Shown here: positions 31,432 through 57,767 of the stretch, one piece after another | How positions within the stretch are numbered: the first letter of the stretch is position 1 | How the letters are laid out: every line of letters starts with the position of its first letter | NCBI GenBank assembly: GCA_016223085.1 | Contig: JACRPS010000003.1 | Coordinates: 747,666 to 811,665 of the forward strand | Direction: 5' to 3' | DNA length: 64,000 nucleotides | DNA from: Chloroflexota bacterium | GTDB taxonomy: Bacteria > Chloroflexota > Anaerolineae > Aggregatilineales > Phototrophicaceae | Translations under genes and position numbers: made by a program | The notes under the pieces: model-generated | What the model was told of the DNA's origin: nothing | What the model saw: the letters and a program-made list of their open reading frames with translations, nothing else | Database searches by the model: none

Positions 31432-31443
31432 CGTAGGTCGCCC

Positions 31444-33705: not shown

Positions 33706-33717
33706 CGTTGTGTTGTG

Positions 33718-33745
33718 GTAGGGGCACGGTATGCCGTGCCCCTAC
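33718..33745. repeat. Palindromic element, GGGGCACGG class
   Basis: Perfect 28-bp palindrome GTAGGGGCACGGTA with its complement, between the parvulin and the 35-residue gene. Same class as the element at 55130-55157 inside the YfhO-type gene. Confidence 0.92.
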
Positions 33746-33789
33746 AATGGCGACATGAGATTGGTTTTTAGCAACCAGAGGCGGCTATC

Positions 33790-33897: not shown

Positions 33898-33911
33898 AGA
33901 GAGGGGCAAGC

Positions 33912-34682: not shown

Positions 34683-35620
34683 TGAGCGAGCAGCAGCCCG
34701 GCGGCATTCGGCGCGTGACGCGCAAGGACCGCAAACGCAAAATCGAAACCGGCAAACTGGAATTCCCGCCGGATGATCTGCGCTATGCGCCGCAGGACGC
34801 GGTTGAGCCGGCAGCAGACGCCGCGCCGGTTGAACCGGCTGCCCCGCCGCCAGGCGAACCGGACGTGGAAGCCAGCATCGAAGAAGCGGCGGTGGAAACC
34901 GCGCCGGTAACGCCCGCGCCGCCCGCCGAACGCTTCCCGCCGCTGGAGTATCCGCCCGAAGCTGCGCCGCCAGCCCGCCAGCGCCCGGCAGCCACCGCGC
35001 CGCCGCGCCGGAATCCGTGCCTGTATAATCTGCTGACGCTGGTGTTTTTGCTGTTAACGGTCGCCGTGATTGGCTGGATTGCGCTGGTGTGGACGAACCC
35101 CTACACGCCGCTGAATCCGCTGGCGCCGTTCACGCCGCTGCCGGTCATCATCACCACCACGCCGCTGCCGGCCACGCCGACGCTTTCCCCCACGCCCTCG
35201 CCGACTGATACGCTCGAACCGACGCCGACCTTCACACCGCTGGCGCTCGCGGCGACACGCTCACCGTTCCCGTTTGTGCTGGTGGATACGGGCATGGTCT
35301 ACGCTCCCAACGGCAACGGCCAGGGCTGCGCCTGGGCCAGCATCGCCGGTTCGGTGACGGATGCCAACGGCGCGCCGCTGAACGATTACCAGATTCGCGT
35401 CGAGGGCGACGATTTTACGCCGCAGCTGGTACGCAGCGGGGCGGCGCTGACTTACGGCGCGGGCGGCTTCGAGATGCCGCTGGGCGACGCGCCGCGCGAT
35501 GACGAATACCGCGTGCAACTGCTCGACCCTGACGGCAGCCCCGTGTCCGACACCTACACCGTCACCACCCGCGCCGACTGTGACGCCAACGTGGCAATTG
35601 TGAGTTTCGTGGGGCAGTAA
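34682..35620 (+). CDS. Membrane-anchored surface protein, paralogue with a long cytosolic part
   Basis: 312 residues. Residues 1-110 are charged and Ala/Pro/Glu-rich, residues 117-138 are the membrane helix ('YNLLTLVFLLLTVAVIGWIA'), residues 150-195 a Thr/Pro linker, and residues 197-312 the extracellular beta domain ('GCAWASIAGSVTDANGAPLN'), which is carboxypeptidase-regulatory-like. It aligns with the upstream protein in helix and outer domain but has a large N-terminal cytosolic addition. The one-base overlap means coupled translation. Function unknown; attachment or adhesion at the surface is a guess. Confidence 0.75.
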   Translation: MSEQQPGGIRRVTRKDRKRKIETGKLEFPPDDLRYAPQDAVEPAADAAPVEPAAPPPGEPDVEASIEEAAVETAPVTPAPPAERFPPLEYPPEAAPPARQRPAATAPPRRNPCLYNLLTLVFLLLTVAVIGWIALVWTNPYTPLNPLAPFTPLPVIITTTPLPATPTLSPTPSPTDTLEPTPTFTPLALAATRSPFPFVLVDTGMVYAPNGNGQGCAWASIAGSVTDANGAPLNDYQIRVEGDDFTPQLVRSGAALTYGAGGFEMPLGDAPRDDEYRVQLLDPDGSPVSDTYTVTTRADCDANVAIVSFVGQ

Positions 35621-35625
35621 CGGGA

Positions 35626-35652
35626 TAGTTGTCAGTTGCCAGTTGTCAGTCA
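35626..35652. repeat. Heptanucleotide-type tandem repeat
   Basis: AGTTGTC-AGTTGCC-AGTTGTC-AGTC: four seven-base units with one varying position, six bases after the stop at 35620. Same kind as 61777-61808 and the longer array at 57624-57752. Confidence 0.7.
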
Positions 35653-35689
35653 AAACAGAAAAAACCGGATGTAGGCATGTTAGCCTGTC

Positions 35690-35817
35690 GATAAGCGATT
35701 GTTGATTGACCAGATTGGCGGCGACGAAACGCACCGCTGGCGTCGTTGATGGAAGTCATCGGCGTACTGATCGAACGCTACGAAGACGAACACGTTCCTG
35801 AACTGGATGAGCTATAA
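35690..35817 (+). pseudogene. Remnant of a HigA-type antitoxin or XRE-family regulator
   Basis: The frame 'RLLIDQIGGDETH' (35696-35734) continues, after one missing base near 35735, as 'PLASLMEVIGVLIERYEDEH' then 'VPELDEL' and TAA at 35815-35817. This matches the N-terminal helical part of HigA-type antitoxins that precedes the helix-turn-helix domain ('LIERYEDEHVPEL'). The helix-turn-helix itself is absent and no toxin is near. It is a decayed fragment, not an active gene. Confidence 0.5.
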
Positions 35818-35830
35818 CGAAAAATGCGAA

Positions 35831-35855
35831 GGGACACGATATATCGTGTCTCTAC
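35831..35855. repeat. Palindromic element, GGGACACGAT class, one end decayed
   Basis: GGGACACGATATATCGTGTC followed by TCTAC; one mismatch in the arm compared with 56267-56294. It lies just after the antitoxin remnant and before the stop of the convergent secreted-protein gene. Confidence 0.8.
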
Positions 35856-35879
35856 GGAGGCCATCGCCAACCGCTATCC

Positions 35880-36830
35880 CTACTGCGCGGGGGCGTACTC
35901 GCCATCCTGCCACTGGAACAGCACTTCGTTCGTTCTGCCGCAGTGCAGCGGCGAACCTGCTTCGTTGCCGTTGCTCGGCACAAACACGCTGCCATCATCG
36001 CGGATTTCCCAGTCCAGCGTCTGCCCCGGATAGCACCAGTCATCGAAGGCGACGCGTAGCTCCACGTAGGGCGCGCGCCCGTCCCAGGTCAGAGCATCCA
36101 GTTCCTTCGCCTCGTCGGTGCCAGTCGCATAGTGCTGCGTGATAAACGTCAGCGGCCCGCCATCCACGTCCAGCACCTGCACCTCCGGCGCGGGGAAAAT
36201 GCTCAATGCTTCCGGCGCGGCGGCGCTTATCAGATGGTTTTCCGACTGGGCATAGGTCAGGCGCTCCAGGCTGTCGCTGGTCACAAAGCTGCTGACAGGC
36301 GCGATCACCTGCCCCTGCCAGTTGTCCTCGGTGTCGAAGAAGGCGATGCTCAACCCGCCGCGAATCGCGTATACCGTTTTCTCCGAGAAGTACGGCACCT
36401 GCGTATGCAGCAGCAGTTCGTCCACGCCGTCGCCGTTCAGATCAAGGAATTCCGTCGTCGGTTCAAAATCAGTCGCCAGCGGCACCGCGCCGAAGTCGCC
36501 ACCCACGTCCACCGCTTCAACCGGCGGCTTGATCTGGCTCAGTTCCGCCAACTGCGCCACCACCTCCGGCTGTTCCGCCAGCGGCTGGTCAGGGTCAGCG
36601 CAGTTGTTGAGGAAAAACTCACTCGTGCCGACCACCCGCCGCACGATGTTCTCCCATTCGGTCGCATCCCAGGGGATGACACCGTTTTCGACGTTGGGCA
36701 GCGTCTTCTCAAACACCTCCGCTGCGAAGGCGTTTACGTCGTCGAAGGCCGCTTCACACCCCGTTTGCGCGCTGGCCGCCCCGGTGACCAGTAAACTCAG
36801 CAGCAGGGCAGCCCATACCAGTCGCTTCAT
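35880..36830 (-). CDS. Secreted protein with an FG-GAP-like Ca-binding loop
   Basis: 316 residues. The N-terminal 'RLVWAALLLSLLVTGAASAQ' is a signal peptide with cleavage after about residue 21 (AxA). The only recognisable motif is 'EFLDLNGDGVDELLL' near residues 127-141, a Ca-binding D-x-N-G-D-G-x-x-E loop as in FG-GAP/VCBS repeats. Six Cys could form disulphides outside. Function unknown. A GAGGAGG upstream supports the ATG at 36830. It is monocistronic. Confidence 0.78.
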   Translation of the reverse strand: MKRLVWAALLLSLLVTGAASAQTGCEAAFDDVNAFAAEVFEKTLPNVENGVIPWDATEWENIVRRVVGTSEFFLNNCADPDQPLAEQPEVVAQLAELSQIKPPVEAVDVGGDFGAVPLATDFEPTTEFLDLNGDGVDELLLHTQVPYFSEKTVYAIRGGLSIAFFDTEDNWQGQVIAPVSSFVTSDSLERLTYAQSENHLISAAAPEALSIFPAPEVQVLDVDGGPLTFITQHYATGTDEAKELDALTWDGRAPYVELRVAFDDWCYPGQTLDWEIRDDGSVFVPSNGNEAGSPLHCGRTNEVLFQWQDGEYAPAQ

Positions 36831-36975
36831 CTCGTTCTCCTCCTCGTTCCGTTGTGCCGCGTCCCTACATATTGACCGGACTCAGCTAAAATTACAAACG
36901 AGATTATAGGGGTAAAGCGAGATCATCATCTGGATGGCCACCCGACTGCCAGCCCACGACTCGGCAACGGAACTT

Positions 36976-37803
36976 CTACCGCACACCCGATTGGAAATAC
37001 AGGAAGATAAAAAAGGCCGTCAGCGCGCCGAGCAAATGCCACAGGCCGTGCCCTTGCAGCCAGCTATCCGGCTTGCACAGTGGCCCGCCGGTTTTCGATA
37101 ACTGCCAGACGACAAAGGCGCTGCCAAACGACACCACCGCCAGGATAAAAAAGGTCCAGCCGCGCCCGGTGCCGCCCGCTCCGCCCAGCAGGATGATGAA
37201 TTGCAGAACCACCCACAGGATGGCAAACGAGCCAAACGCAAACGAGCCAGGGGTTAAGCCCAGAATTTTTGAACCGCGATGGTTTTTATCCATCCACCAC
37301 GTCCAGTAACCGAGCGCGACGTTGGCGATCAGCCACAGGACGAGAAACACGGCGCTGCCGGCGTTAAACAGCGTGTGGATGAGATCGTACAGAAACAGGA
37401 AGCTGGTGAAAATCACCATCGAGAAGGTGTCCAGCCAGCCGCCCCATTGTTTCATCGAAGCGTGGAAAAACATGCTGCCAGGGCCGAGGAAGATCACCAC
37501 CGCGCCATAGAGAATCGCCAGCAGCGACGGCGCTTTCATCGGGTTCGGCTCGGTAGCGGGGTTTAGGCCGCTGCCACCGACCATGATGAGGATCACCAGC
37601 CCAGCCAGCATAAAGCCGAGGTTTGACCAGGTATTGATTGGCTGCTTAATCATGCCGGGATGCAGCCTCTCGCAGTAACAATCGTTAGCCGCGATGCAGT
37701 CGTCATCCTCCGACGACGGAATCCAGCCGGTCAGCCCCAGGATAAAGAAGATTGCCATCAGGACGCCAGATTCGATCAGCCCAACCGCCAGTGCCGTGCC
37801 CAT
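36976..37803 (-). CDS. Ceramidase-like (CREST superfamily) membrane protein
   Basis: 275 residues with seven hydrophobic segments. The alkaline ceramidase pattern is visible: an early 'CYCERLHPGMIKQPINTWSN', then 'GPGSMFFHASMKQWGGWLD' and 'LDTFSM' with the metal-binding Ser/His/Asp, and 'LQGHGLWHLLGALTAFF' near the end with two His. These three elements form the zinc site in the family. It may hydrolyse an amide bond in sphingolipid-like lipids or act as a related membrane hydrolase; the substrate is inference. A small palindrome (TACCG-ATA-CGGTA) sits 33 bases upstream of its start. Confidence 0.8.
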   Translation of the reverse strand: MGTALAVGLIESGVLMAIFFILGLTGWIPSSEDDDCIAANDCYCERLHPGMIKQPINTWSNLGFMLAGLVILIMVGGSGLNPATEPNPMKAPSLLAILYGAVVIFLGPGSMFFHASMKQWGGWLDTFSMVIFTSFLFLYDLIHTLFNAGSAVFLVLWLIANVALGYWTWWMDKNHRGSKILGLTPGSFAFGSFAILWVVLQFIILLGGAGGTGRGWTFFILAVVSFGSAFVVWQLSKTGGPLCKPDSWLQGHGLWHLLGALTAFFIFLYFQSGVR

Positions 37804-37907
37804 TCCATCCTCCCCCGCTATTCAATTGTGGTCTATACCGATACGGTAGTTATAGGCTGATTTAGGAAACAGCGTCAAGCGGAGCAAAAGTCCGGGTAGA
37901 TGACGGT

Positions 37908-38594
37908 TTACACGTAAGCCGCATCCTTGAAGCTGCGCGGGCCGGTCTGCACTACGCCGATCTGCGGGCACAGGTCGCGCACCAGACAGGTGGCGCACTG
38001 GGGATAGGTCGGCTTGCACACCTCGCGCCCGAACTGCACCATCAGTCCGTTCCAGTGCGGCCAGTATTCGCGCGGTAGCTTCTGTTTCAGTTCTTCGTTG
38101 ATTTTCGGCGGCTGCTTCGTATCCGGGTTGACCAGCCCCAGCCGCTTGCCAATGCGACCGACGTGGACATCAACCGTGATGTCCTCGGTGCGTCCGTAGC
38201 CAACGGCCAGCGTCAGCACCGCCACTTTCCAGCCGACACCCTTGTATTCCATCAGCTCGTCAACCGTCTGCGGCACAACGCCGCCATTGGCCGCCACGCG
38301 CTGCGCAATATCACGGACGTATTTGACTTTGTTTTCCCAGTACATGACCGGGCGGATCGCTTCGGTAATCTGTTCATCGGTCAGCTTGAGCATGTCGTCG
38401 GGGTTGTCCGCCAGCGCGAACAGGTTGTTCATCGCCAGGAAGGTCTGCTCCTCGCGGGTCTGCGCGCTCAACATGGCGGCGATCAGCGCCTTAAACGGCT
38501 GGCCCTTATAGTAGCTGAGGGTGGTCGGCGGCCAGTTTTTCGCGGCCTCGCTGATGCGCTCGTAAATCTCGCGGATGCGGGCGGAGTCGTCCAT
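37908..38594 (-). CDS. nth: Endonuclease III (DNA glycosylase/AP lyase)
   Basis: 228 residues. The helix-hairpin-helix 'LMEYKGVGWKVAVLTLAVGY' holds the catalytic Lys (K123), 'ITVDVHVGRIGKRLG' holds the catalytic Asp (D142), and C193, C200, C203 and C209 form the C-x6-C-x2-C-x5-C [4Fe-4S] site. It removes oxidised pyrimidines and cuts the abasic site. Trp replaces Arg in 'GVGWK' compared with the usual GVGRK. The gene starts one base after the stop of the HNH gene, so base excision repair is co-transcribed with it. Confidence 0.93.
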   Translation of the reverse strand: MDDSARIREIYERISEAAKNWPPTTLSYYKGQPFKALIAAMLSAQTREEQTFLAMNNLFALADNPDDMLKLTDEQITEAIRPVMYWENKVKYVRDIAQRVAANGGVVPQTVDELMEYKGVGWKVAVLTLAVGYGRTEDITVDVHVGRIGKRLGLVNPDTKQPPKINEELKQKLPREYWPHWNGLMVQFGREVCKPTYPQCATCLVRDLCPQIGVVQTGPRSFKDAAYV

Positions 38595-39002
38595 TTACCA
38601 CAGTCCTTTTTCAATCAATTCGCGACGGGCTTTAAGCCGGCTGGTTTCGTTCATTTGCAACAGGCGAGCCGTAACCCGCCCAACCGGAGTCTTTCCAATA
38701 ATAACTGCATCGCTTATTCCAAAGTGTTCATTCCAGGACTGCCTCCGAGGATTAAACAACGGTGTGAGTTCTCCAGTCAGTTCATCATAGCCGGATATAT
38801 CATCGCTCTTGTTGGTATTGCAATCGAAACATGCCCAGGCCAGATTTTCCAAACCCAGTGAACCGCCATGCCGCTTTACGGGAATAATATGATCTACATG
38901 AAAACTGTAGGGACTGAAACGTTCCTGCTTGCCGCAATATTCGCAGCGTCCTTCGGCACGCCGGCGCACCGTATCGCGTATAGATGAAGGAACTCGGCTC
39001 AC
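38595..39002 (-). CDS. HNH endonuclease
   Basis: 135 residues. The HNH core is 'CEYCGKQERFSPYSFHVDHI' continuing 'IPVKRHGG', then 'LENLAWACFDCNTNKSD'. C20/C23 and C58/C61 form a structural zinc site, H38 is the general base and N53 and N62 are the core Asn residues. The start overlaps the stop of the 83-residue gene upstream by four bases (ATGA). Such HNH proteins with a small helical partner are common in Cyanobacteria and Chloroflexota; the target is unknown. Confidence 0.9.
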   Translation of the reverse strand: MSRVPSSIRDTVRRRAEGRCEYCGKQERFSPYSFHVDHIIPVKRHGGSLGLENLAWACFDCNTNKSDDISGYDELTGELTPLFNPRRQSWNEHFGISDAVIIGKTPVGRVTARLLQMNETSRLKARRELIEKGLW

Positions 39003-39250
39003 GATTGTTTCAGCATACCGGCTGCCTGAGCCTTCAGGAGAGACACCATCCGCTCAAACTGGAGCATTTGCTGGAGTTCTATCGTTTCTTCCGGCGTGAG
39101 TTCGCCCTCATTGTTTTTGTCCAGAAGTTCATCAGCCCGCCGCTGCATCGTAGCTGAGACTTTAAACGCCAGAATTTGTTCTGGCGTGGCGGACTGTGCC
39201 AGGTATTCGACTAATTCCTGATACACCGGGGAAACTGCATTTGCTGCCAT
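38999..39250 (-). CDS. Small helical protein encoded before an HNH gene
   Basis: 83 residues, from the ATG at 39250 with GGAGGG upstream. No characterised domain; 'SATPEQILAFKVSATMQRRA' and 'ELTPEETIELQQMLQFERMV' are patterns seen in short proteins found upstream of HNH endonuclease genes. It overlaps that gene by four bases, so they are co-translated, and it may be an inhibitor or chaperone of the nuclease; this is inference. Confidence 0.75.
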   Translation of the reverse strand: MAANAVSPVYQELVEYLAQSATPEQILAFKVSATMQRRADELLDKNNEGELTPEETIELQQMLQFERMVSLLKAQAAGMLKQS

Positions 39251-39286
39251 ACCAACCCTCCGCACTAATTCACGTTATATTATATC

Positions 39287-40837
39287 CTACTCCACATACC
39301 CCAACGCCCGCAGATGATCGAGCACCGACTCATCCATTTCCCCGGATGTGCCCGCCCCCGCCCGGAGGCGTTCGGCTTCAGCCACAAACGCGGCGGCCTG
39401 CTGCTGCAAGGCGGCAGCGCGGCGGCTGTCCTGTGCGGCAAGATTGGCGGTCTCGGCGGGGTCGGCGGCCACGTCGTACAGCCCTTCCACCTGATCGCCA
39501 ACCAGCGCCAGCTTGTGCTCGCCGTCATACACGCCCCGGCGCACCAGTGACAGGCGCAGCCGTTGAATCAGCGCCGGGTTGCGGTGCTGGATGAATCCCA
39601 GAAACGTCTGCGGCGGAAACGCTTCAGCAAAGGCGACGTTGCCCTCAGTATCAGGGTGGCCGTTGGTGACGTTTGCCAGCGTCAGCGCGCCGATATTGGC
39701 GTTCGGGTCGGCCTCGTCCAATGGAGGCGGCACGCCCGCCGCGTCGAGTATCGTATGGAACACCCGCCGCGTCGAGACTGTGGCGCTGATGCACTTGCCT
39801 GCCGGGAAGCGGTCGGGATAACGAATGACCAGCGGTACATGCACCAGTTCCTGATACACAACGAAGCCGTGCCCGAAGAAATCATGGTCGCCGTGCCCTT
39901 CGCCGTGATCGGCCAGAATGATGACCAGCGTGTTATCGAGCGCACCGGACTGCCGCAGGTAGCGCAGCAAGCGCCCCAACTGCGCGTCCTGATAGGCAAT
40001 TTCAGCGTCGTAGAAATCCAGCAGCGCCGCGCGCTGCCAGTCCGCCAGCGCCGGGTCAGGCGGCGACGCCCAGCGCCCGGCGTCGGCGTTAAAGCGCCGC
40101 ACGAAGTTGTAGGCGCGGCGGTCACGGCGCAGTTCTGGCGCCACCCGGTCTACATAATCCTGTGGCGGTCTGTACGGCAGGTGCGCGCCCATCAGATTCA
40201 CAAACGCGAACAGCGGACGTTCCGCGCCGCCGGCGTGATGCTGCCCCCAGTAGGCGATCATGTCATCTATCGTACTGGCGGTGTGACCCTTGAAGTTAAT
40301 CAGCCGCGACCAGACCGGCACGACCAGCGGACTCATGGACAACCGGAACAGCGTGTCGGAATTGGCGAAACGATTTTCAATCGGGCGGGCGACATGGCGG
40401 CGGAAACGGGTCTTAAACGCTTTCACCAGCGCGGGTTCGCCGGTGTCAAACGGGCGGTTCGGCACGGTGCCGGCGTAGTTGTAAAACCGCTCGAAGCCGC
40501 GCCGCAGGCCGTTATTCAGCACGCCAAGCAGCGGATTGTTGCAAAAGCCGACGGTGTGATAGCCCGCGCCGCGCAGGATTTCCACCAGCGTCGGGAACAG
40601 GCCGGATAGCCGGGCATTGGCTTCAGTTAGTTGGTGCGTGCTGGGATACACCCCTGTGAACAGGGAAGCGTGCGCTGGAATCGTCCACTGCGCAGGTGAC
40701 ACAGCGCGATCAAACACGGTTGCTTTTGCCGCGAAGGCATCCAGTTCCGGCGAGGTGTCACGGCTGTGGCCGTAGCCGGAGAGACGGTCACGGCGCAGGG
40801 TATCCAGCACGATCAACAGGACGTCAGGTTTTTGCAT
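39287..40837 (-). CDS. Sulfatase/alkaline-phosphatase superfamily hydrolase with a Thr nucleophile
   Basis: 516 residues. The start 'PDVLLIVLDTLRRDRLSGYG' has the metal-binding Asp pair. In sulfatases the next motif is C/S-x-P-x-R; here it is 'SPAQWTIPAHASLFTGVYPS', so Thr52 sits where Cys or Ser would become formylglycine and Arg is replaced by His. Thr at this place is normal in phosphoglycerol transferases and phosphonoesterases of the superfamily. 'TLVIILADHGEGHGDHDFFG' supplies the later Asp-His metal ligands. It is therefore likely a phosphohydrolase or phosphotransferase rather than a sulfatase. No signal peptide or membrane segment is obvious. Confidence 0.82.
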   Translation of the reverse strand: MQKPDVLLIVLDTLRRDRLSGYGHSRDTSPELDAFAAKATVFDRAVSPAQWTIPAHASLFTGVYPSTHQLTEANARLSGLFPTLVEILRGAGYHTVGFCNNPLLGVLNNGLRRGFERFYNYAGTVPNRPFDTGEPALVKAFKTRFRRHVARPIENRFANSDTLFRLSMSPLVVPVWSRLINFKGHTASTIDDMIAYWGQHHAGGAERPLFAFVNLMGAHLPYRPPQDYVDRVAPELRRDRRAYNFVRRFNADAGRWASPPDPALADWQRAALLDFYDAEIAYQDAQLGRLLRYLRQSGALDNTLVIILADHGEGHGDHDFFGHGFVVYQELVHVPLVIRYPDRFPAGKCISATVSTRRVFHTILDAAGVPPPLDEADPNANIGALTLANVTNGHPDTEGNVAFAEAFPPQTFLGFIQHRNPALIQRLRLSLVRRGVYDGEHKLALVGDQVEGLYDVAADPAETANLAAQDSRRAAALQQQAAAFVAEAERLRAGAGTSGEMDESVLDHLRALGYVE

Positions 40838-40878
40838 AGCGGTTAACCGTTAGCGTTTGGCGCGCGATACAAACATCG

Positions 40879-40906
40879 GTAGGGGTGCACGGTCGCGCGC
40901 CCCTAC
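40879..40906. repeat. Palindromic element, GGGG(T)GCACGG class, imperfect
   Basis: GTAGGGGTGCACGG and CGCGCGCCCCTAC pair with mismatches. It lies upstream of the sulfatase-superfamily gene, 41 bases before its start, and 57 bases after the stop of the membrane-protein gene. Confidence 0.7.
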
Positions 40907-40963
40907 AGAAACGGCGCTGGCACAATCATACCGGCGCCGGATTAGAATTGATTTAGAATGGGG

Positions 40964-41848
40964 TTATGCCGCCGCGAACGCCTCGCGTGCCAGTGCCGTG
41001 TCAATGAATGGGCCGGCGTCGCCGGTGGTGGCGTATTTGTAGAGCGACGCCTGAAAGATGCCGTTGACCGCGCCCTGGAGCAGCCCCAGCATCACAATCG
41101 CCAGGATGACCAGCGCCACCGCGCCGATAATCAGCGCCGCCGATTCGGTCGCAATAGCGGCAAACACAATCAGCCCGCCGATGATAAACACCGCCACATA
41201 CGCCAGGCAGGTGATACCGCCGATGGCCGTGCTGCCGGTGAAGTGTTCGCCCCAGGTGCGTTTGAACAGGTCAAAGCTGCGCCGGAGCGAGTCCACCACG
41301 CCGCAGTCCTCCACCACCAGCACCGGAATCGCAAAAAAGACCAGCAAATTCCACGCGCCCTGCAGCAGCCCGCCGATGATGGCCGCCAGGATAGCAATAA
41401 TCGGATTTTTAGAGTCACGTCCCGCGTCCCGGATGCCGCGTGCGATCATCCCGACCGTCGCCGAAATGATGGCGTAAACGATGATCTTGCCCAGCCGCGC
41501 CGAGGCGATTTGAATCCCGTCGTTGACCGTCGCCGGTTCGCCGTGAATGATCTTCATGGCCGCGCCGACCAGCGCCGTGTTCGAGAAAATGACGACGGTA
41601 TAGGCGACGACGTAATACAGAAACAGCACGATGGTGGCGATCACCCCGGCGATGTCATTTGTTACCGTACCTTCCTGCGTCAGCGCCTGGAAGATGCCGG
41701 TCGCCGAAATGGGAATCAGAAACAGGATGGTGACGATAATCATGCCGATCATCGAAATCACCGGAAACATGAGTAACTGCGGATTGGCGCGCAGCGCGCC
41801 CCAGCTTTGTTTCGACAGTTCCCAACCGTTGCGGATTTTGCTCCCCAC
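40964..41848 (-). CDS. DUF6159-like integral membrane protein
   Basis: 294 residues with about six hydrophobic stretches: residues 25-50, 65-92, 115-134, 145-170, 205-230 and 235-258. The start 'GSKIRNGWELSKQSWGALRA' and central 'ALVGAAMKIIHGEPATVNDG' match a family of multi-pass proteins with no defined function. It is upstream of, and on the same strand as, the sulfatase-superfamily gene but separated by a palindromic element. A role in the membrane, perhaps cell envelope homeostasis, is a guess. Confidence 0.75.
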   Translation of the reverse strand: MGSKIRNGWELSKQSWGALRANPQLLMFPVISMIGMIIVTILFLIPISATGIFQALTQEGTVTNDIAGVIATIVLFLYYVVAYTVVIFSNTALVGAAMKIIHGEPATVNDGIQIASARLGKIIVYAIISATVGMIARGIRDAGRDSKNPIIAILAAIIGGLLQGAWNLLVFFAIPVLVVEDCGVVDSLRRSFDLFKRTWGEHFTGSTAIGGITCLAYVAVFIIGGLIVFAAIATESAALIIGAVALVILAIVMLGLLQGAVNGIFQASLYKYATTGDAGPFIDTALAREAFAAA

Positions 41849-41915
41849 GTGTCCACTCCTCCTGCTTGTTGTGCTATCATCGTCAGCATAGTCCCGTTCA
41901 GGCAGGTTGGCAACT

Positions 41916-43490
41916 ATGCGTTCTTTTGGCTACCGTTTTTTCATAACGTTGTCGGCGCTGTTGATCGCGGTCGCGCCGGTTCGCGCACAGGGACAGTGCG
42001 GCACAGTGACAAGCATCGGCTTCCCGGTGGATGTGACGCAGTTCCGGCTCGTGCAGGATTATGGTGTGCCCAGCCCGCGCCACCAGGGGCGCTACCACAC
42101 CGGCGAGGATTATTACGGCGGGCGCGGCAGCAGCTACGGCCAACCGGTGCGCGCCATTGCCGCTGGACGCGTAACCTATTCCGCGCCGCTGGGCTGGGGA
42201 CGCGATGGCGGCGTGGTCATCATCGAGCACACGTTCCCGGACGGCAGCATCGCCTACAGCCAGTATGGTCATATGGAAGAACGCCCGGAGACGCCGTTCC
42301 CGGCGCGCTATGGCTGTGTCAAAATGGGCGATGTAGTAGGCAGCGTCGGCAATGCGCGCCCGGCCCCGCACCTGCATTTTGAAATCCGCACCAACCAGCC
42401 GGACGTGCCTGGCCCCGGCTATACCTGGGATTTTCCCGATCAACTCGGCTGGGTGAAGCCAACGCCGTTTGTCACCAACTGGAGCGCCTGGCTGCAAGCG
42501 TCGCACCGCTGGCATACGTCCTTAAGCGCCGACTGGCGTATCCCGCCCGTCGAACTGGACGACCACAGCCTGGTTTACCTGGACAGCAACCGCCTGCGGC
42601 GGCTGACGCCGGATGGCCGGTTGCTGTGGCGTGTCAACTTTGACCGGCAGGCGGTCGGCGTGTTCGCTTACGAAAACGCGGCGGCGGTCGCCTTTGCCGA
42701 TGGCACGATGCAGCCGTTTGGACTGGATGGCACGCCCGGCGAAGCGTGGACGACGAACGTTCCGCTTCAGCAGCAGGTGTTAGTAACAGGCGATACGCTG
42801 ATGTTCCAGACGCCGGACAACGTGCTGGTCGCTTTTGGCGCCGACCGCACGACTCCCGCATGGCGTCTGGATGGCATGCCGCCCATCGTAGACGCTTTCG
42901 CCGCGCCAAAGGTGTGGGCGTTCCTGTCCGCCGGCCACCGCCTGTTCAGCGTATCGCCGGACGGCAGACTGCTGGACACGGCCACGCTGCGCGCCCCCGC
43001 CAGTTTCGCTGCCGCGCGGGATGGCGCGCTGCTGGCGTACTCGCAGGGCGGGCTGTGGCGCGTCGGCGCAGATGGCGTGTGGTCGCTGGTGAAAGACGAT
43101 GCGCCGCCGGGCGGTGCGGACAGCGGTGTGCTGGTGGCGGACGATGGCACTTTATACGTGGTCAGTAGGGACAGGCCATGTCGTGTCCCTACCTGTCCCT
43201 CCACGCTCACCGCCTATGACCACAACGGCGGTCTGCGCTGGCAGGCGGACCTGCCGGGTATGAGTGGGCAGGCGCAGGTGCAGAAAATGGACGATAAGCT
43301 GCTGCTCGTCAGCACCGGCGGGAATATCCTCACGCTAAAGGACACCGACGGTGCGACGTGTAATGCCATGCGCATCTATGGCGGCGTGCGTGTGTGGGAT
43401 AGTTTGGGCGCGGACGGCGTGCTGCGGCTGGCTATCGGCACGCAGATGATGGGGCTGGACTGGCAAACCCTGTCTGGCGATTGTGGCTAA
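41916..43490 (+). CDS. Secreted M23 peptidase with a beta-propeller domain and an in-frame palindromic element
   Basis: 524 residues. 'YRFFITLSALLIAVAPVRAQ' (residues 6-25) is a signal peptide. The LytM domain (residues 45-175) has H61 and D65 in 'RYHTGEDYYGGRG' and H152/H154 in 'APHLHFEIRTN', the M23 zinc ligands, so it may cut peptidoglycan cross-links. Residues 200-524 form a PQQ-like propeller ('LTAYDHNGGLRWQADLPG'). A 28-bp palindromic element (43165-43192) is read through as about ten residues (RDRPCRVPTC) in a loop after 'LYVVS'. The ATG at 41916 follows a TTG at 41907 that is also in frame. Confidence 0.85.
   Translation: MRSFGYRFFITLSALLIAVAPVRAQGQCGTVTSIGFPVDVTQFRLVQDYGVPSPRHQGRYHTGEDYYGGRGSSYGQPVRAIAAGRVTYSAPLGWGRDGGVVIIEHTFPDGSIAYSQYGHMEERPETPFPARYGCVKMGDVVGSVGNARPAPHLHFEIRTNQPDVPGPGYTWDFPDQLGWVKPTPFVTNWSAWLQASHRWHTSLSADWRIPPVELDDHSLVYLDSNRLRRLTPDGRLLWRVNFDRQAVGVFAYENAAAVAFADGTMQPFGLDGTPGEAWTTNVPLQQQVLVTGDTLMFQTPDNVLVAFGADRTTPAWRLDGMPPIVDAFAAPKVWAFLSAGHRLFSVSPDGRLLDTATLRAPASFAAARDGALLAYSQGGLWRVGADGVWSLVKDDAPPGGADSGVLVADDGTLYVVSRDRPCRVPTCPSTLTAYDHNGGLRWQADLPGMSGQAQVQKMDDKLLLVSTGGNILTLKDTDGATCNAMRIYGGVRVWDSLGADGVLRLAIGTQMMGLDWQTLSGDCG
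43165..43192. repeat. Palindromic element inside the M23-propeller gene
   Basis: GTAGGGACAGGCCATGTCGT with TGTCCCTAC, an imperfect member of the GGGACACGA class. It is read in the frame AGT-AGG-GAC, which avoids the TAG stop of the third frame, and adds about residues 417-426 between 'LYVVS' and 'STLTAYDHNG'. Confidence 0.85.
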
Positions 43491-43506
43491 TAGCAAACTG
43501 GCCCGC

Positions 43507-43974
43507 TTACCGTTTCCCCCACTCCCACAGCCCGTAACCGACGGCATCCGGCAGGGGATAGCCCACCTGCGCCAGCGTCATCCCGATTTCCCCGATGTGA
43601 TACCATTCGTGCGCCAGAAAATATCCAAACCCTCCTGCCGCGTGTGGTTTCATATTTTTGATTTTGCCTGTCTCAAACCCGCGCCGGAACAACATTTCCA
43701 TGACCTGCGCTGACGCTTCCAGCGCGGCGCGCAGCGTATCCTTCTCAAACGTGTCTTTCTTTTTTGCCGGGATTTTGGATAACCCTTGCAGTAAATCCGG
43801 CGCGGCGGCTTCCAGCCACGTCAACCGGTTGTTATGCAGGTGCGCCAGCATCTGCCCCACACTGCGGCCTTTGTCGGGCGCGGCGTTCAGCGCCTCCGGG
43901 GTAATCGCGTCCAGCAGATACAGCGTTATCCGGTGGTGAATGGTCCATGTGTCCAGCAGTTGTTCATCCAGCAT
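43507..43974 (-). CDS. DinB-family four-helix protein
   Basis: 155 residues. The DinB metal-binding His residues are visible in 'GQMLAHLHNNRLTWLEAAAP' and 'GYFLAHEWYHIGEIGMTLAQ' near residues 48 and 126-130. The family is a four-helix bundle often using mycothiol or bacillithiol. Target unknown. The ATG at 43974 is chosen; a GTG at 43983 is in frame and lies close to AAGGGG, so the start is uncertain. It is convergent with the M23 gene, 16 bases away. Confidence 0.85.
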   Translation of the reverse strand: MLDEQLLDTWTIHHRITLYLLDAITPEALNAAPDKGRSVGQMLAHLHNNRLTWLEAAAPDLLQGLSKIPAKKKDTFEKDTLRAALEASAQVMEMLFRRGFETGKIKNMKPHAAGGFGYFLAHEWYHIGEIGMTLAQVGYPLPDAVGYGLWEWGKR

Positions 43975-44013
43975 GATGTCCACACCCCTTGCTAACCGTT
44001 TAACCTCTTTCCA

Positions 44014-44718
44014 CTACTCATAAAACGCTGGCGCTTTTTTCAGCGTTTCCCACTGCTCCCCGTCATGACCGAAAATCACCAGCGCGACATGCTCCCGTTC
44101 AACCAGATCAAGCAGTTTGATCGTGCTGGCGCGGATGGCTTCGGCGTCCGGGTTAGTTCCATCGTCCTGCTTGTCACGGGTAAAGCCCTCGCCGAAGGGC
44201 ACAGCGTCAATCGGCAGCAGAACCGCGCCCGTGTTGGGTAGCCGCACCAGCACCGATTGATGCCCCGGCACATGCCCGCTCGTTTCGATCAACTCCAGCC
44301 CCGGCAGCAGTTCCGTGTCCCCGTCTACCAGCCGAATCCGTTCCATCGGCTGATCCCACTGGGGTCGAGTGGCAGCAAAACGTGGGTTGCTCGCCGCGTC
44401 CAAATGATGCACGCGCTGAACAACATATTGCGCCTTTGTGAATGCTGCGTGTCTTCCGGCATGATCCAGATCATAGTGCGTCGAAATGACGGTATCAATA
44501 TCGTCCGGTTTTAAGCCCATGCTCGCCAACTGCTCGATAACGTCCTGCCCATTCTCGAACTCCGATTCTCCTTCAGGCATAATCTCCGGTAGACCACTGT
44601 CAATCAGGATATTCCTGCCGTCACCCGTTTGCACCAGATAACACACAATCGGAATCTGGTATTCCGGCATAATCCCGACCTGCATCAGATAAAGACGCTG
44701 TACAGCATTCTGGCTCAT
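44014..44718 (-). CDS. Metallo-beta-lactamase-fold hydrolase, AHL-lactonase-like
   Basis: 234 residues from the third of three consecutive ATGs (44724, 44721, 44718), which has the best spacing from AGGTGAGG. The zinc motif is 'STHYDLDHAGRH' (H81, D85, H86), with Asp83 where lactonases have a second His. Later ligands are 'ETSGHVPGHQSVLV' and 'VIFGHDGEQW'. The architecture is that of N-acyl homoserine lactonase-like MBL proteins, but the missing His makes quorum-quenching activity uncertain; a related lactone or ester is as likely. Confidence 0.83.
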   Translation of the reverse strand: MSQNAVQRLYLMQVGIMPEYQIPIVCYLVQTGDGRNILIDSGLPEIMPEGESEFENGQDVIEQLASMGLKPDDIDTVISTHYDLDHAGRHAAFTKAQYVVQRVHHLDAASNPRFAATRPQWDQPMERIRLVDGDTELLPGLELIETSGHVPGHQSVLVRLPNTGAVLLPIDAVPFGEGFTRDKQDDGTNPDAEAIRASTIKLLDLVEREHVALVIFGHDGEQWETLKKAPAFYE

Positions 44719-44782
44719 CATCATTTCCTCACCTGTATTCGAACATAAATTCTAACACGGCCTTGATGGGCTGTAAAGCAGG

Positions 44783-44811
44783 TTGTCAAAGCGGGCGATC
44801 ACAGCGACAAT
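44783..44811 (+). promoter_or_regulatory. Putative promoter of the SH3b/M23 gene
   Basis: TTGTCA at 44783-44788 and GACAAT at 44806-44811 are 17 bases apart, 31 bases before the ATG at 44843, which is preceded by GAGGAGAG. Confidence 0.5.
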
Positions 44812-44842
44812 GAGCAGTGGCAAGAGTTAGAGGAGAGGTGTA

Positions 44843-46282
44843 ATGGCCGGAGAGCGACGCTATAAAGTGATTGATGGGCCAGTGGGCATCCGCGCCGAAC
44901 CCGATGGGCAACGGTTGGGCGAGCAGTTAACGCAGGGTGCTGAGATTACCGTGCTGGGCGAACCGGTCGAAAAAGGCGGCTACGTCTGGGTGCAGCATGG
45001 CCGGGGCTGGTCGGCGGCACGCAACAGCGAGGGTGACGACGTGTTTATGCTCGACATCACTGACCGCCCGGCGAACGCGCCGCGCATCTTCCGTGTCTGG
45101 GCGCAGAATATCAGCGTGCGGAACGCGCCCAATGGGTTACGTACCGGGCAAAAGTTGTTCCGTCCGGCGGAAATCAAAGTTGACCCAACCTCACGCACCG
45201 AAGCCGGCGGTTACGTCTGGTGGAAACACGACCTGGGCTGGTCGGCAGAGTGCAGCACCAATGGCCGCGAAATCTTCATGAAAGAGGTGTTTGACGTGTC
45301 CCCGGCGGCGCTGGGCATCGCTCCGCCGCAGCGCGTTGAGCTGCCGGCACACTACAAAAGCAAGCTGCTGATGCAGTGCGCGCAGCCGACCAAAGTCCGC
45401 GCGCAGCCATCCACTGATCCACGCGGCTTCATCATCATCCAGTTGAAGCGCGGCAAAGTGCTGGAAGTGGATATGGACACAGTGCGCGAGGCCGATGGGT
45501 ATTACTGGGCCCGGCACGATCTGGGCTGGTCGGCCATCCAGAGTCTTGACGGCAAAACCGTGTTCCTGGCCGAACCGGGCACGATTCCCGGCCTGCCGTA
45601 CATCGGCCCGAACGGCCCGCGCGTCGAAGACCTACCGGGGCGCGGCGTGCTGGTCACGCGGCTGCCGGTAGACTTAAATGATATTCAGTGGTTCCAGTAT
45701 TACGGCAACAATATGTGGGCTTACACGCAGGGTCGCGCTTACGGTTACGACCGCTATTCGCAGGGTTTGCACGGTGGGCTGGACTTCGGCAACAACCAGC
45801 GCCCCGGCATCCGCGTCTACGCCGGTATTGCCGGCGAGTACGTCAAAACCGAGTATCCGAGCAAAAACAACACCCGCGTCGTCCTGAAAAACGGCCCATA
45901 CACCTTCATCTACCAGCACATCACCAGTGCGCGCCCGTTCAGCAAGGGACAGGCGATCACGCCGGATACGGTCGTTGCGGAGGTCGAACACGAGTCTATC
46001 AACGGCGGCTGGAATCACCTGCATTTTGAAGTGCGCTTTGGCGACGACTGGATTATCAATCCGCTGCTGCTGATGACCGATGCGCTGAAACAGCAGCTTT
46101 TCGCTCGTTTCCTGCCAGACAAGCCCAACCAGAATTATAAGCAGACCGATTCAACGCTGAACTTCTTTTACAAATCCGCGCGCTGGTCGCGCTGGTGCGC
46201 GCCGCTGGACCAGCCGATGATTAAGCTGGCCGGGCCATGTGTTGGCCCGCGTTATGAACTGGGCGAGGAAGCGGGGGCGTAA
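44843..46282 (+). CDS. M23 peptidase-like protein with three SH3b-like repeats, no signal peptide
   Basis: 479 residues. Three repeats of about 85 residues (near 5-75, 85-155 and 170-250) each end in 'Y.W..H..GWSA' ('YVWVQHGRGWSAARN', 'YVWWKHDLGWSAECS', 'YYWARHDLGWSAIQS'), resembling SH3b wall-binding modules. The LytM domain has 'GLHGGLDFGNN' (H310, D314) and 'WNHLHFEVRFGDDW' (H392, H394). No N-terminal hydrophobic segment is seen, so export is unexplained; it may be released by lysis or by another pathway. The ATG has a strong GAGGAGAG Shine-Dalgarno. Confidence 0.83.
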   Translation: MAGERRYKVIDGPVGIRAEPDGQRLGEQLTQGAEITVLGEPVEKGGYVWVQHGRGWSAARNSEGDDVFMLDITDRPANAPRIFRVWAQNISVRNAPNGLRTGQKLFRPAEIKVDPTSRTEAGGYVWWKHDLGWSAECSTNGREIFMKEVFDVSPAALGIAPPQRVELPAHYKSKLLMQCAQPTKVRAQPSTDPRGFIIIQLKRGKVLEVDMDTVREADGYYWARHDLGWSAIQSLDGKTVFLAEPGTIPGLPYIGPNGPRVEDLPGRGVLVTRLPVDLNDIQWFQYYGNNMWAYTQGRAYGYDRYSQGLHGGLDFGNNQRPGIRVYAGIAGEYVKTEYPSKNNTRVVLKNGPYTFIYQHITSARPFSKGQAITPDTVVAEVEHESINGGWNHLHFEVRFGDDWIINPLLLMTDALKQQLFARFLPDKPNQNYKQTDSTLNFFYKSARWSRWCAPLDQPMIKLAGPCVGPRYELGEEAGA

Positions 46283-46303
46283 AGGAAAATTTGGCGGTTT
46301 TTC

Positions 46304-46334
46304 GTAGGGGCGAACCGCCCCGGTTCGCCCCTAC
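46304..46334. repeat. Palindromic element, GGGGCGAACCG class
   Basis: GTAGGGGCGAACCG and CGGTTCGCCCCTAC with a three-base centre, 22 bases after the M23 stop. It pairs with the element at 46373-46402; the two flank a TATAAT box. Confidence 0.9.
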
Positions 46335-54830: not shown

Positions 54831-57767
54831 TTATTTTTTCCACGCTACCACAAGCCAGACTGTGACAAGCAGCCAGGCCGCGCCACCGATCAGCAGCGCC
54901 CAGGGATGCCAGCCGGGACGGTACTCGAAAACAACGCTGCTTTCACCTGCCGTAATCGGCACGGCACGGAACATGACGTCCGCCCGCAGCACGTTGGTCG
55001 GCTGGCCGTTCACCGTCGCCGTCCAACCGGGGAAATAAGCATCGGTGAGAATGAGATAGGCATCCTGGTCACTGCTGACTGTGATTTCAACGCGGGTGGG
55101 GGTGTAGGATGTGATTTCTGTAGTCGCCTGTAGGGGCACGGCATGCCGTGCCCCTACGTTATTATCGGTCGCGATCACTGCTGTCTGCGTCGGGTCAAAG
55201 GCCGGGTCACGCATGAGAGCCAGCGTATCCTCGCTGCCCTGCCACATGTCCGGCACGGCCAGCACGTCGCCGACCACAAACGCGCGCGGCAGCACGTCCC
55301 GGTTCTCGTACAGCTTCACGTCGCTGGACAGCACCCGCCGCCAGGGGCCGAGTGTTAGCGGCTGGAAATCGCCAGTGCGGGTATCCACCAGCGTCACGGC
55401 GGTCAGTTCCAACGGGGAATTGGCGCGAATGTTCACGGCGCGGGCGATCAGAGGCGTGGGCAGGGGCAGCCGCGCCAGCCGGAAGGTATCAACCGCGCTT
55501 TCATCACCCCCGAATGTTAACGCCTGTGCTTCACCGTTCACATCTGTAACCGTCACGGTCGGCACACGGCAGGCGGCATTGCGGCAGCAGTCAGTGTCCC
55601 CGCAGCGGTACAATAGGTCTATCGCGGTCGCTTCAAACGTCGGCAGCTCATCCAATATCGTGTTACCGCCGGTTTCCAGCTTCACGACAAACTGTGTATC
55701 GTAAGCCACATCCTCGTGCCATAGGTCGTAAATTTTATCGGTGATGAGATAGCGCGTATTGGTCAGATTCAGCCAGCGCTGGTCAGGGATACACGCGCCC
55801 CAGCAGGCTTCTTTCGCCAGAATTTCGCGCAGACGCCCGTCCACCGTGCGCAGTTCGCCCGCCGGCAGCAGCAGCGAGGTGAACTGGGTATACCAGCCGG
55901 TCGGCAACACGCCGCCGTCAAAGCCATCTACGCTTGGCACGCCCCACACCAGCGGCAGGTTAGCGGCCAGCGTTTCGCGCATTTTGGTATCCACCAGCGC
56001 GATTCGTATCGCCAGATCAGACATGCCCAGCACGCGATAGCGGGCAATCAGCGCGTCGGCATCGCCGGGGTCGAACTGCAACCCGCTGATACTGAGGATG
56101 CGCCCTGGCGGCGTCTGTTCCATCGCGTAAGCGCGCAGTTGGCTGATGGTAAACCGCTGTGCCGTGAACGTGTCCGGCGGCGTGACCTCGTTGTAGGCCA
56201 GCACCCGCGACGCGAAAAACAGTTCCACAATAGCTGCCGCGCACAGGACAGGCACAGCAAAACGGTGTAGGGACACGATATATCGTGTCCCTACAGTCGC
56301 CCCCACCAGCGCCGCCAGCGCGACCACCCACGCAATCATGCTGCGCGCCGTCGGCACTGCCGGGCCGATTACGTCCACCGCCATCTGCTCGGTAAACCGG
56401 GTGCTGAAGGCCAAACCGCCGACGATCAGCACGACCAGCGCCAGCACCCAGGCGCGTGGGCGCGTCCCGGCTTGCAGCGATTGCAGCCCGATGCCGGCCA
56501 GTATTGCCAGCGCCAGCGCGAACAGCGCCAGCCAGCGCGCCGGCACGCGAAAAAAGCTGAAGCCCGGCAGGTACGCCAGCGTCCAGTACAGCGGGTTATA
56601 CAGTCCCAACGCCAACCCGAAGCCGATAATGGCGAGCAGAACCCAGGGCAGACGGCGCGGGGTATCGGTAGGGGCGAACCGGCGGTTCGCCCCTACGCCG
56701 TTAACGATCCCAATGATCGCCAGCCCCAGGCCAATCACGCCGACATAAACCACATATTCGCCAAACAGCAGGCTGTCGTAGCTGGGTAGCAGGCCGCGCC
56801 CGATCACAAACGGGTTGAGCGAAAACGCCATCGCCTGCTGCGGATTAAGGCCGCTGCTGCGGTTCGAGCCGCCCATCAGTTCCAGCATCGGCACCAGTTG
56901 TGGCGACGCCAGCAGCAGCGCAATTAGCCCCGCTCCGGCCAGCACCAGCAGCGGACGCAACGCATTACCAAGTCGCGCCTGTAGGGACGAGGCATGCTTC
57001 GTCCCTACGGTCATGCCGTAAACCACTAGCCCCACCGTCGTAATAAAGACAGTCTGCGGATGCCCGGGCAGCGTTTGCAGCGCCAGAGCAATGCCGAGCA
57101 GCAAGATGGAACGAAGGTTGTAGGGGCGAACCGGCGGTTCGCTCCTACAGATGGCGTGGTGAAATATGCCAAATATCCAGGGCATCCAGGCCAGCGCCTG
57201 TAGCTGGTTGATGTTTTCTGCCTTCGCCCCCAGGTAGCCGCCCAGCCCGAACAGAGCCGCTGCCAGCAGCGCCGGCAGCGTGTCCAAGCGAACGACTCGC
57301 CGCGCCAGCCAGTACGCCCCTAGCAGCGCCCAGACCACATGCGCCAGCAGACTGATGGTGATGCCGGTGGGCGGGTCAAACGGCACCAGCGGCCAGTTCG
57401 GCGGGTAAAACGTACCAACCTGGCTGTTCGCCAGCAGCGGCACACCCATGAAGATGTCCGGCGACCACAGCGGAAGCTGTCCATTCATCAGCGCCGCATT
57501 GCGAACGTGCCAGTACGGGTAAAAGTAGGCGTACACATCGCCGCGCGCCAGTATCAGGCCGGAAAACGCGAGCCGGTGGAAAAACAGCAGCGTCAGCGCC
57601 AGGAGAAGAATAGGGATGAGGGGAGAGTTCCGAGTTCCGAGTTCCGAATTGGAAGTACTGAGTGCTGAGTGCTGAGTACTGAGTTCTGAGTTCCGACTGC
57701 TGAGTGCTGAGTTTTCAGAACTGGCAACTTCTTTTGACTGCTGACCGCTAACTGCTGACTGCTTCAT
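54831..57767 (-). CDS. YfhO-type membrane glycosyltransferase-like protein with five in-frame palindromic elements
   Basis: 978 residues. About 12 membrane helices in the first 560 residues (for example 'PLIPILLLALTLLFFHRLAF' near 49-68) and an extracytoplasmic C-terminal part (600-950) ending in one more helix ('HPWALLIGGAAWLLVTVWLV'). This matches the YfhO family, which acts in cell-envelope glycosylation in some bacteria. Five palindromic elements (57119, 56981, 56668, 56267, 55130) are translated as short inserts near residues 207-217, 254-263, 358-367, 492-501 and 871-880, all in loops. The first 48 residues are Ser-rich and come from a heptanucleotide repeat, so the real start is uncertain. 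Confidence 0.83.
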   Translation of the reverse strand: MKQSAVSGQQSKEVASSENSALSSRNSELSTQHSALSTSNSELGTRNSPLIPILLLALTLLFFHRLAFSGLILARGDVYAYFYPYWHVRNAALMNGQLPLWSPDIFMGVPLLANSQVGTFYPPNWPLVPFDPPTGITISLLAHVVWALLGAYWLARRVVRLDTLPALLAAALFGLGGYLGAKAENINQLQALAWMPWIFGIFHHAICRSEPPVRPYNLRSILLLGIALALQTLPGHPQTVFITTVGLVVYGMTVGTKHASSLQARLGNALRPLLVLAGAGLIALLLASPQLVPMLELMGGSNRSSGLNPQQAMAFSLNPFVIGRGLLPSYDSLLFGEYVVYVGVIGLGLAIIGIVNGVGANRRFAPTDTPRRLPWVLLAIIGFGLALGLYNPLYWTLAYLPGFSFFRVPARWLALFALALAILAGIGLQSLQAGTRPRAWVLALVVLIVGGLAFSTRFTEQMAVDVIGPAVPTARSMIAWVVALAALVGATVGTRYIVSLHRFAVPVLCAAAIVELFFASRVLAYNEVTPPDTFTAQRFTISQLRAYAMEQTPPGRILSISGLQFDPGDADALIARYRVLGMSDLAIRIALVDTKMRETLAANLPLVWGVPSVDGFDGGVLPTGWYTQFTSLLLPAGELRTVDGRLREILAKEACWGACIPDQRWLNLTNTRYLITDKIYDLWHEDVAYDTQFVVKLETGGNTILDELPTFEATAIDLLYRCGDTDCCRNAACRVPTVTVTDVNGEAQALTFGGDESAVDTFRLARLPLPTPLIARAVNIRANSPLELTAVTLVDTRTGDFQPLTLGPWRRVLSSDVKLYENRDVLPRAFVVGDVLAVPDMWQGSEDTLALMRDPAFDPTQTAVIATDNNVGARHAVPLQATTEITSYTPTRVEITVSSDQDAYLILTDAYFPGWTATVNGQPTNVLRADVMFRAVPITAGESSVVFEYRPGWHPWALLIGGAAWLLVTVWLVVAWKK
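55130..55157. repeat. Palindromic element inside the YfhO-type gene (1 of 5), GGGGCACGG class
   Basis: Perfect 28-bp palindrome, GTAGGGGCACGGCA and complement. Read on the reverse strand in frame GTA-GGG it gives VGARHAVPLQ (about residues 871-880), between 'ATDN' and 'ATTEITSYTP' in the extracytoplasmic part. Confidence 0.9.
56267..56294. repeat. Palindromic element inside the YfhO-type gene (2 of 5), GGGACACGAT class
   Basis: Perfect 28-bp palindrome, GTAGGGACACGATA and complement. In frame GTA-GGG it gives VGTRYIVSLH (about residues 492-501) between two membrane helices. Confidence 0.9.
56668..56696. repeat. Palindromic element inside the YfhO-type gene (3 of 5), GGGGCGAACCG class
   Basis: GTAGGGGCGAACCG and CGGTTCGCCCCTAC around one base (29 bp). 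In frame GTA-GGG it gives VGANRRFAPT (about residues 358-367) in a loop between membrane helices. Confidence 0.9.
56981..57008. repeat. Palindromic element inside the YfhO-type gene (4 of 5), GGGACGAGG class
   Basis: GTAGGGACGAGGCATGCTTC with GTCCCTAC, one mismatch to the copy at 14180. In frame GTA-GGG it gives VGTKHASSLQ (about residues 254-263). Confidence 0.88.
57119..57149. repeat. Palindromic element inside the YfhO-type gene (5 of 5), GGGGCGAACCG class
   Basis: 31-bp element TGTAGGGGCGAACCGG with one decayed base (CTCCTACA). It is read in the other open frame, TGT-AGG, giving CRSEPPVRPYN (about residues 207-217), just before a membrane helix. Confidence 0.88.
57624..57752. repeat. Heptanucleotide tandem repeat encoding the N-terminus of the YfhO-type protein
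   Basis: Seven-base units of the type GAGTTCC, GAGTGCT and GAGTACT (about 12-15 copies, with drift). Three units make 21 bases, so the translation is a seven-residue repeat: NSELSTQ-HSALSTS-NSELGTR. The same kind of unit is found untranslated at 28605, 35626 and 61777. Confidence 0.75.

What the first reader, a model, noticed from the sequence alone, without database searches (positions are those of the whole stretch)
55130..57149. Five palindromic elements inserted in one open reading frame and translated
The YfhO-type gene carries elements at 55130, 56267, 56668, 56981 and 57119 within its coding frame. In reverse-strand reading four use GTA-GGG (VGARHAVPLQ, VGTRYIVSLH, VGANRRFAPT, VGTKHASSLQ) and one uses TGT-AGG (CRSEPPVRPYN). 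The third frame would read TAG; none uses it. The inserts lie in loops between helices or outside the membrane. This parallels the Rickettsia palindromic elements, which also insert in coding sequence, and is a clear sign of selection on the inserted frame.
Basis: partly seen in the sequence, partly recalled or inferred. Interest (0 to 1): 0.85.

Follow-up and report, generated by a model that had tools for sequence, protein, structure and literature searches.

The report
Swappable palindromic repeats inside translated genes
A bacterial genome is peppered with hundreds of 28-30-letter DNA palindromes, some of them read as protein inside working genes, and comparison with a sister species suggests that many of the spots stay put while the palindrome sitting in them is exchanged for a different one.

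Summary
Observation confirmed: the 978-residue YfhO-type gene holds five palindromes, four read GTA-GGG, one TGT-AGG. They belong to a 744-copy family with constant ends GTAGGG...CCCTAC and several arm classes. In a 27% sample of the genome 25 of 259 copies are translated in frame (21 GTA phase, 4 TGT-AGG phase), one in the genome's only methionyl-tRNA synthetase gene over cut-off. 'Inserted' is only partly supported: homologues are shorter at three of the five sites (Y3, Y5, mostly Y2), not at Y1, mixed at Y4. The unexpected result is comparative. Sister species G013 has a palindrome at the same aligned place at 10 of 30 gene-edge sites (control 2.0%) and 5 of 23 coding sites. Over 16 sites readable in both, ends agree 89%, arms 55%; leaving out three same-class sites, arms are no more alike than in permuted pairs (0.48 v 0.45). 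Coding pairs kept length 4 of 4, others 3 of 12. Best reading: REP-like palindromes whose sites persist while their arms are overwritten in place. Repeated insertion at favoured spots is the main rival. The enzyme is unknown: no RAYT passes its cut-off. Rickettsia RPE-4/6/7 exchange is the closest printed precedent.

The parts
54831..57767 (-). YfhO-type membrane protein gene, 978 aa, host of five elements
   Evidence: ORF and Pfam YfhO
55130..55157 (-). Element Y1, arm class GCACGGCA, read VGARHAVPLQ
56267..56294 (-). Element Y2, arm class ACACGATA, read VGTRYIVSLH; G013 has a palindrome with other arms here
56668..56696 (-). Element Y3, 29 nt, arm class GCGAACCG, read VGANRRFAPT
56981..57008 (-). 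Element Y4, arm class ACGARGCA, read VGTKHASSLQ; same codon occupied in MAG J064
57120..57148 (-). Element Y5, 29 nt, one end GTAGGA, read in TGT-AGG phase as CRSEPPVRPYN
43165..43192 (+). Another translated copy in the window (TGT-AGG type phase, SRDRPCRVPT), C12:790830
2253..46334 (.). Range holding the other eight exact-ended copies of the window, starting at 2253, 6307, 19636, 25123, 25726, 33718, 40879 and 46304

Best explanation
The five stretches belong to a high-copy, REP-like family of short DNA palindromes (mostly 28-30 nt) with constant ends GTAGGG/CCCTAC and exchangeable arm classes. About a tenth of the sampled copies lie in genes, in turns and linkers, in an open phase, and are translated as 9-11 residues. 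Some sites are older than the split of G000 and G013. Once a site is occupied, its arms can be replaced in place by those of another class while ends and position stay; inside genes only same-length replacements were seen. Shown: the family, open in-frame reading in 25 of 259 sampled copies, site sharing above control, arm turnover with pairing kept. Inferred: that sharing means common descent of the site, and that exchange runs through the single-stranded hairpin, the ends serving as 6-8 nt of microhomology for template switching or as the tag of an IS200/TnpA-like enzyme.
For: 744 copies v 7 control. 25 of 259 translated, including the only MetRS gene over cut-off. G013 has a palindrome at the aligned place at 10 of 30 gene-edge sites v 2.0% of 4785 control windows and at 5 of 23 coding sites with no control window as high. 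Ends 170/192, arms 124/224, flanks 627/934 identical; 37 of 112 arm pairs paired in both species with both bases changed. Without three same-class sites arm identity 0.478 v 0.453 permuted. C8:66785 has three arm sets in three species. Same length in 4 of 4 coding v 3 of 12 other pairs, P 0.019. G000 classes at switched sites are often multi-copy classes of G000, so transfer between sites is needed.
Against: 18 of 23 coding and 20 of 30 gene-edge sites show no palindrome above control in G013. With the three same-class sites kept, orthologous arms are somewhat more alike than permuted pairs (0.554 v 0.466, P 0.03), and L251 and GlyS still agree at 11 of 14 arm positions. The 16 sites were chosen for having a palindrome in G013, element borders in G013 were set by hand, and the same-class set was named afterwards. 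Five of 91 rows from other relatives reach 9-10 pairs with no control as high, so the coding test has false positives. Y4 in J064 (27 of 28 bases, near relatives without it) fits repeated use of a spot. No enzyme identified.
Confidence: 0.5

Rival explanations
1. Recurrent insertion: mobile palindromes insert again and again at the same few tolerated or preferred spots and are lost in between, so sister species carry different classes by independent events.
For: J064 has a 27/28 identical element at the same codon as Y4 while G013, G005, G006 and G007 have none, and MAG-262 has one in the same loop about 30 nt further. GlyS in G001 is shifted by two codons. The base before GTAG is A in only 4%, a weak target preference.
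Against: Base-exact agreement of the site at many places with conserved flanks, e.g. L146, L235, L239, L145. No target duplication.
Confidence: 0.3
2. Arms drift by point mutation and are re-paired, either by selection for the hairpin or by copying one arm onto the other; no transfer between sites is needed.
For: Among 28-mers that differ from a master by two bases, 6 of 17 are Watson-Crick compensated pairs. In 55 matches from eight other genomes of the class 340 of 369 inner pairs match although arms are very diverse.
Against: Tens of identical copies of three classes in one genome; arms at 13 switched sites are as unlike as random pairs while flanks are still alignable. The six compensated cases are not independent (two are identical, and some lie between two master classes).
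Confidence: 0.12
3. Plain RPE-like insertion: each element inserted once, is kept or decays, and is never exchanged; apparent exchange is alignment chance or loss of one of two neighbouring copies.
For: Net gain of residues at C12:247407 (10), a methyltransferase-like gene (8 against G013) and the C8:57160/57208 pair (32); 22 of 259 copies have a neighbour within 100 bp.
Against: Site sharing far above control with different arms at the same base.
Confidence: 0.08

Closest known systems
GTAG-tagged REPs (Di Nocera et al. 2013, PMC3733652; abstract, passages and sections 5, 12, 13, 15 read)
   Same: Short high-copy palindromes with a GTAG end, mostly between genes, some inside ORFs, TAG of the end used as a stop codon; families with complementary stem changes.
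   Different: There the GTAG is an unpaired tag at one end and many units form dimers; here GTAG pairs with CTAC at both ends and 237 of 259 copies have no exact-ended neighbour within 100 bp. No family with these ends was named in the sections I read.
Rickettsia palindromic elements RPE-4, RPE-6, RPE-7 (PMC3767692, section 12 and passages read)
   Same: Palindromes inside ORFs; inserts modelled as solvent exposed; different RPE groups listed for orthologous genes, with hotspot or common origin left open.
   Different: RPE regions there are 68-192 bp by its Table 1, CGTC-tagged according to PMC3733652; the Chloroflexota family is 26-31 nt, GTAG-ended, and mostly outside genes.
REP/TnpA-REP (RAYT) systems (PMC8266576, passages read)
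   Same: GTAG recognition of single-stranded hairpins; group 3 REPs are generally perfect palindromes. Two Y1 transposase genes of G000 each lie within about 35 bp of a 75-90 bp unit carrying a GCACGGCA palindrome.
   Different: Both proteins pass the IS200 model and fall below the RAYT model cut-off (25.7 and 34.6 v 80 bits); the protein is not found in palindrome-rich G013 and G036.

Membership tests
GTAG REP (PMC3733652) | short high-copy palindrome with GTAG terminus | tested here: met
   744 copies; 26-31 nt in the first 1.25 Mb
GTAG REP (PMC3733652) | GTAG unpaired, at one end only | tested here: not met
   GTAG pairs with CTAC, both ends alike
GTAG REP (PMC3733652) | RAYT gene in the genome, flanked by the repeat | tested here: not met
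   no RAYT model over cut-off among the two separate Y1_Tnp genes; a third PF01797 match is a domain of a 1043-aa protein
Rickettsia palindromic element | in-frame, translated inside ORFs | tested here: met
   25 of 259 sampled copies; MetG single over cut-off; expression itself not tested
Rickettsia palindromic element | rickettsial sequence, CGTC tag, longer units | tested here: not met
   ends GTAGGG/CCCTAC, mostly 28-30 nt
MITE | target-site duplication | tested here: not met
   direct repeats of 1-5 flanking bases at chance level in 259 copies
IS200/IS605 mobilised element | cognate TnpA cleaves at the element | not testable with these tools
   needs biochemistry; copy number and TnpA presence only loosely related

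The most novel reading that the evidence does not exclude
A genome-wide set of long-lived palindrome sites whose contents are overwritten in place by the currently abundant arm class, also inside essential translated genes, so that orthologous proteins carry exchangeable same-length peptides (MetG VGTRHAVSLQ v VGTRYASSLQ; C12:993306 VGARHAVPLQ v VGAHSRASLQ; C8:66785 VGTRYIVSLR v VGAYGRKPLQ).
Probability: 0.45. Interest if true: 0.82.

Novelty: new variant of a known kind. Interest (0 to 1): 0.62.

Why it matters
PMC3767692 leaves open whether different RPE groups at one site mean a hotspot or one diverged insert. A family whose sites persist while the arms turn over, in coding and non-coding DNA alike, separates founding of a site from exchange of its content and makes both measurable by strain comparison. 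It would also be a way for proteins to gain and swap short loop peptides without a frameshift.

Tried and rejected
Empty sites in the own genome by joining flanks: 7 matches, to related repeat units or weak, no clean footprint. Protein homologues give no clean footprint because the loops vary in length: net change from none (MetG v G005, GlyS v G013, C12:993306) to +10 residues (C12:247407). G013 stretches in DnaG, OppDF, C12:747019 and C8:67574 look like decayed elements by eye but score 8-9 of 14 pairs, not above control; not counted. RAYT as mover: none over cut-off. TnpA presence against copy number over 98 genomes: 24 with a close TnpA (E<1e-30) have median 19 copies v 5 (Mann-Whitney P 2.7e-5), but kinship is not controlled and G036 and G013 (285 and 180 copies) have none; inconclusive. 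'Copies prefer gene starts' (58 away v 15 toward): a product of how flanks were scored. Literature searches (open-licence PMC only) listed no paper on this family or on in-place arm replacement that I recognised; most hits were seen as listings only, and the original RPE papers were not read. One query was mis-aimed and found nothing.

Full report
What was checked. The window lies on contig C12 of a 6.03 Mb genome in 37 contigs (G000, unnamed). Named homologues of the gene come from Chloroflexi/Anaerolineae records, one of them Aggregatilineales, so I take it to be a Chloroflexota bacterium.

The family. GTAGGG-N(12-24)-CCCTAC occurs 744 times in G000 against 7 for the reversed control. A 1.65 Mb sample holds 259 copies, 121 perfect palindromes and 228 with at most two mismatched pairs; lengths 28 (144), 29 (75), 30 (23) and 17 others. 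Three classes have 26, 24 and 27 perfect copies. In 98 genomes of the family 88 have a match; many counts are no higher than their control, the richest after G000 being G036 (285), G013 (180), G084 (152) and G021 (123). In 121 genomes drawn from the phylum, own included, 73 have a match, again often at control level. I re-scored 55 of the listed matches, from eight genomes of the same class and other families (the listed ones of G164 and G126 were left out): 39 have perfectly paired inner arms and 340 of 369 inner pairs match, with many different arms.

Inside genes. Coding flanks were called on each side separately with a codon model, the element left out, so that a frame-breaking copy could have been seen. 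Of 259 copies, 32 have both flanks coding on one strand: 21 in frame in GTA phase, 4 in frame in TGT-AGG phase, 1 in frame in TAG phase (it ends the upstream gene), and 6 in TAG phase with shifted frames (flank 240, threshold 15; over the five settings tried the four numbers range 16-21, 3-4, 1-3 and 3-6). So 25 of 259 are open and in frame, 4 of them in YfhO. Hosts named from sequence by eye (recalled, not searched except MetG) include MetG, a fused GlyS, DnaG, a two-ATPase transporter protein, a biotin-carboxylase-like protein and many membrane proteins. MetG is the only one of 8 matches over the curated cut-off, so that copy is very probably translated in a needed gene. In 15 ORFs with one coding flank that run into a copy, 13 meet its TAG.

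YfhO sites. Among 12 homologues (44-73% identical) the stretch has 2-9 residues at Y3, 3-8 at Y5, 4-15 at Y2, 2-15 at Y4 and 9-15 at Y1, against 10 or 11. G013 has a palindrome with other arms at Y2 and none above control at the other four. At Y4 the 53%-identical homologue of MAG J064 has an element at the same codon, 27 of 28 bases identical, while nearer relatives have none; this counts against one-time insertion with simple descent. The predicted model puts all five at turns, Y2 with only 4 of 10 residues in coil.

Sister species, coding. For 24 of 26 coding sites (25 exact-ended plus Y5; the C8:57160/57208 pair, absent from G013 and G005, was left out) the relatives' DNA was scored for self-pairing near the aligned centre against other windows of the same stretch. 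G013 was available at 23: MetG 13 of 14 pairs, GlyS 12, C12:993306 12, C8:66785 14 and Y2 11, with no control window as high; the other 18 score 5-9 and are not above control. GlyS in G001 (12, shifted two codons) and C8:66785 in G005 (11) add third species. Five of 91 rows from other relatives reach 9-10 pairs with no control as high; I treat these as chance.

Sister species, gene edges. Of 73 copies with one coding flank, 62 gave segments, 43 were searched and 30 gave a fetched G013 locus. At 10 of 30 the aligned place in G013 has at least 9 of 11 pairs, against 2.0% of 4785 control windows in the same loci; the same ten have shuffle p of 0.025 or less. From the other side 15 G013 loci were fetched; 4 could be placed on both flanks in my G000 sample, 2 share the site and 2 do not.

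Arms. Over 16 sites with a readable palindrome in both species (10 gene-edge, 2 from the G013 side, 4 coding) ends agree at 170 of 192 positions, arms at 124 of 224, and flanks at 627 of 934 for the 12 non-coding pairs; 37 of 112 arm pairs are paired in both with both bases changed. Three sites (L239, L241, L255) keep their class; two more (L251, GlyS) agree at 11 of 14. Without the three, arm identity is 0.478 against 0.453 permuted (P 0.31); with them 0.554 against 0.466 (P 0.03). Lengths agree in 4 of 4 coding and 3 of 12 other pairs (one-sided Fisher P 0.019). The sets are small, chosen for a palindrome in G013, with borders set by hand.

Mechanism. Identical multi-copy classes need transfer between sites; constant ends with exchanged arms suggest that the ends are what is matched. 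Compensated pairs (6 of 17 double changes in 28-mers, not independent) suggest that one arm is sometimes also copied onto the other. I infer hairpin-mediated template switching or a Y1-nuclease reaction; neither is shown. The two IS200-type TnpA genes each lie within about 35 bp of a 75-90 bp unit carrying the GCACGGCA palindrome, but the protein is not found in G013 or G036, and 230 of 259 copies lie outside such units.

Relation to known kinds. The family works like a REP and, in genes, like an RPE, but lacks the one-ended unpaired GTAG of GTAG REPs and the tag and length of RPEs. Exchange has a precedent in Table 1 of PMC3767692, where different RPE groups (4, 6, 7) are listed for orthologous genes of Rickettsia species and the authors weigh hotspot against divergence.

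Noticed in passing
57612-57767: A second dispersed repeat (AGTRCTGAGT units; 74 motifs in 19 loci of the 1.65 Mb sample) forms the N-terminus of the YfhO ORF and is also open in frame (NSELSTQHSALS...).
   Followed up: partly
L001:1388-1462, L002:1911-1985 and other places of the G000 sample: A 75-90 bp unit with inverted ends TATCCRTAAACC nearly always carries a GCACGGCA-type palindrome inside, another unit (GGATTTTTC...GGTCATCCAT) a GCGAACCG one; both IS200-type TnpA genes abut the first kind.
   Followed up: partly
L064:13119-16247: A 1043-aa protein joins a response-regulator receiver domain to a C-terminal Y1_Tnp-like domain (Pfam), a possible domesticated transposase fold.
   Followed up: partly
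51198-54803: Downstream neighbour of the YfhO gene is a TIR_2 plus WD40-repeat protein; a palindrome without the GTAG ends (GGGACACGATATGTCGTGTCCC) lies at 54780-54801 near its start.
   Followed up: no
57832-58386: Uma2-family gene upstream of the YfhO gene (Pfam).
   Followed up: no
L131:1583-1610 and L139:1584-1611: Two distant YfhO homologues carry palindromes in the loop of Y4, one at the same codon and nearly identical, one about 30 nt further in another phase.
   Followed up: partly
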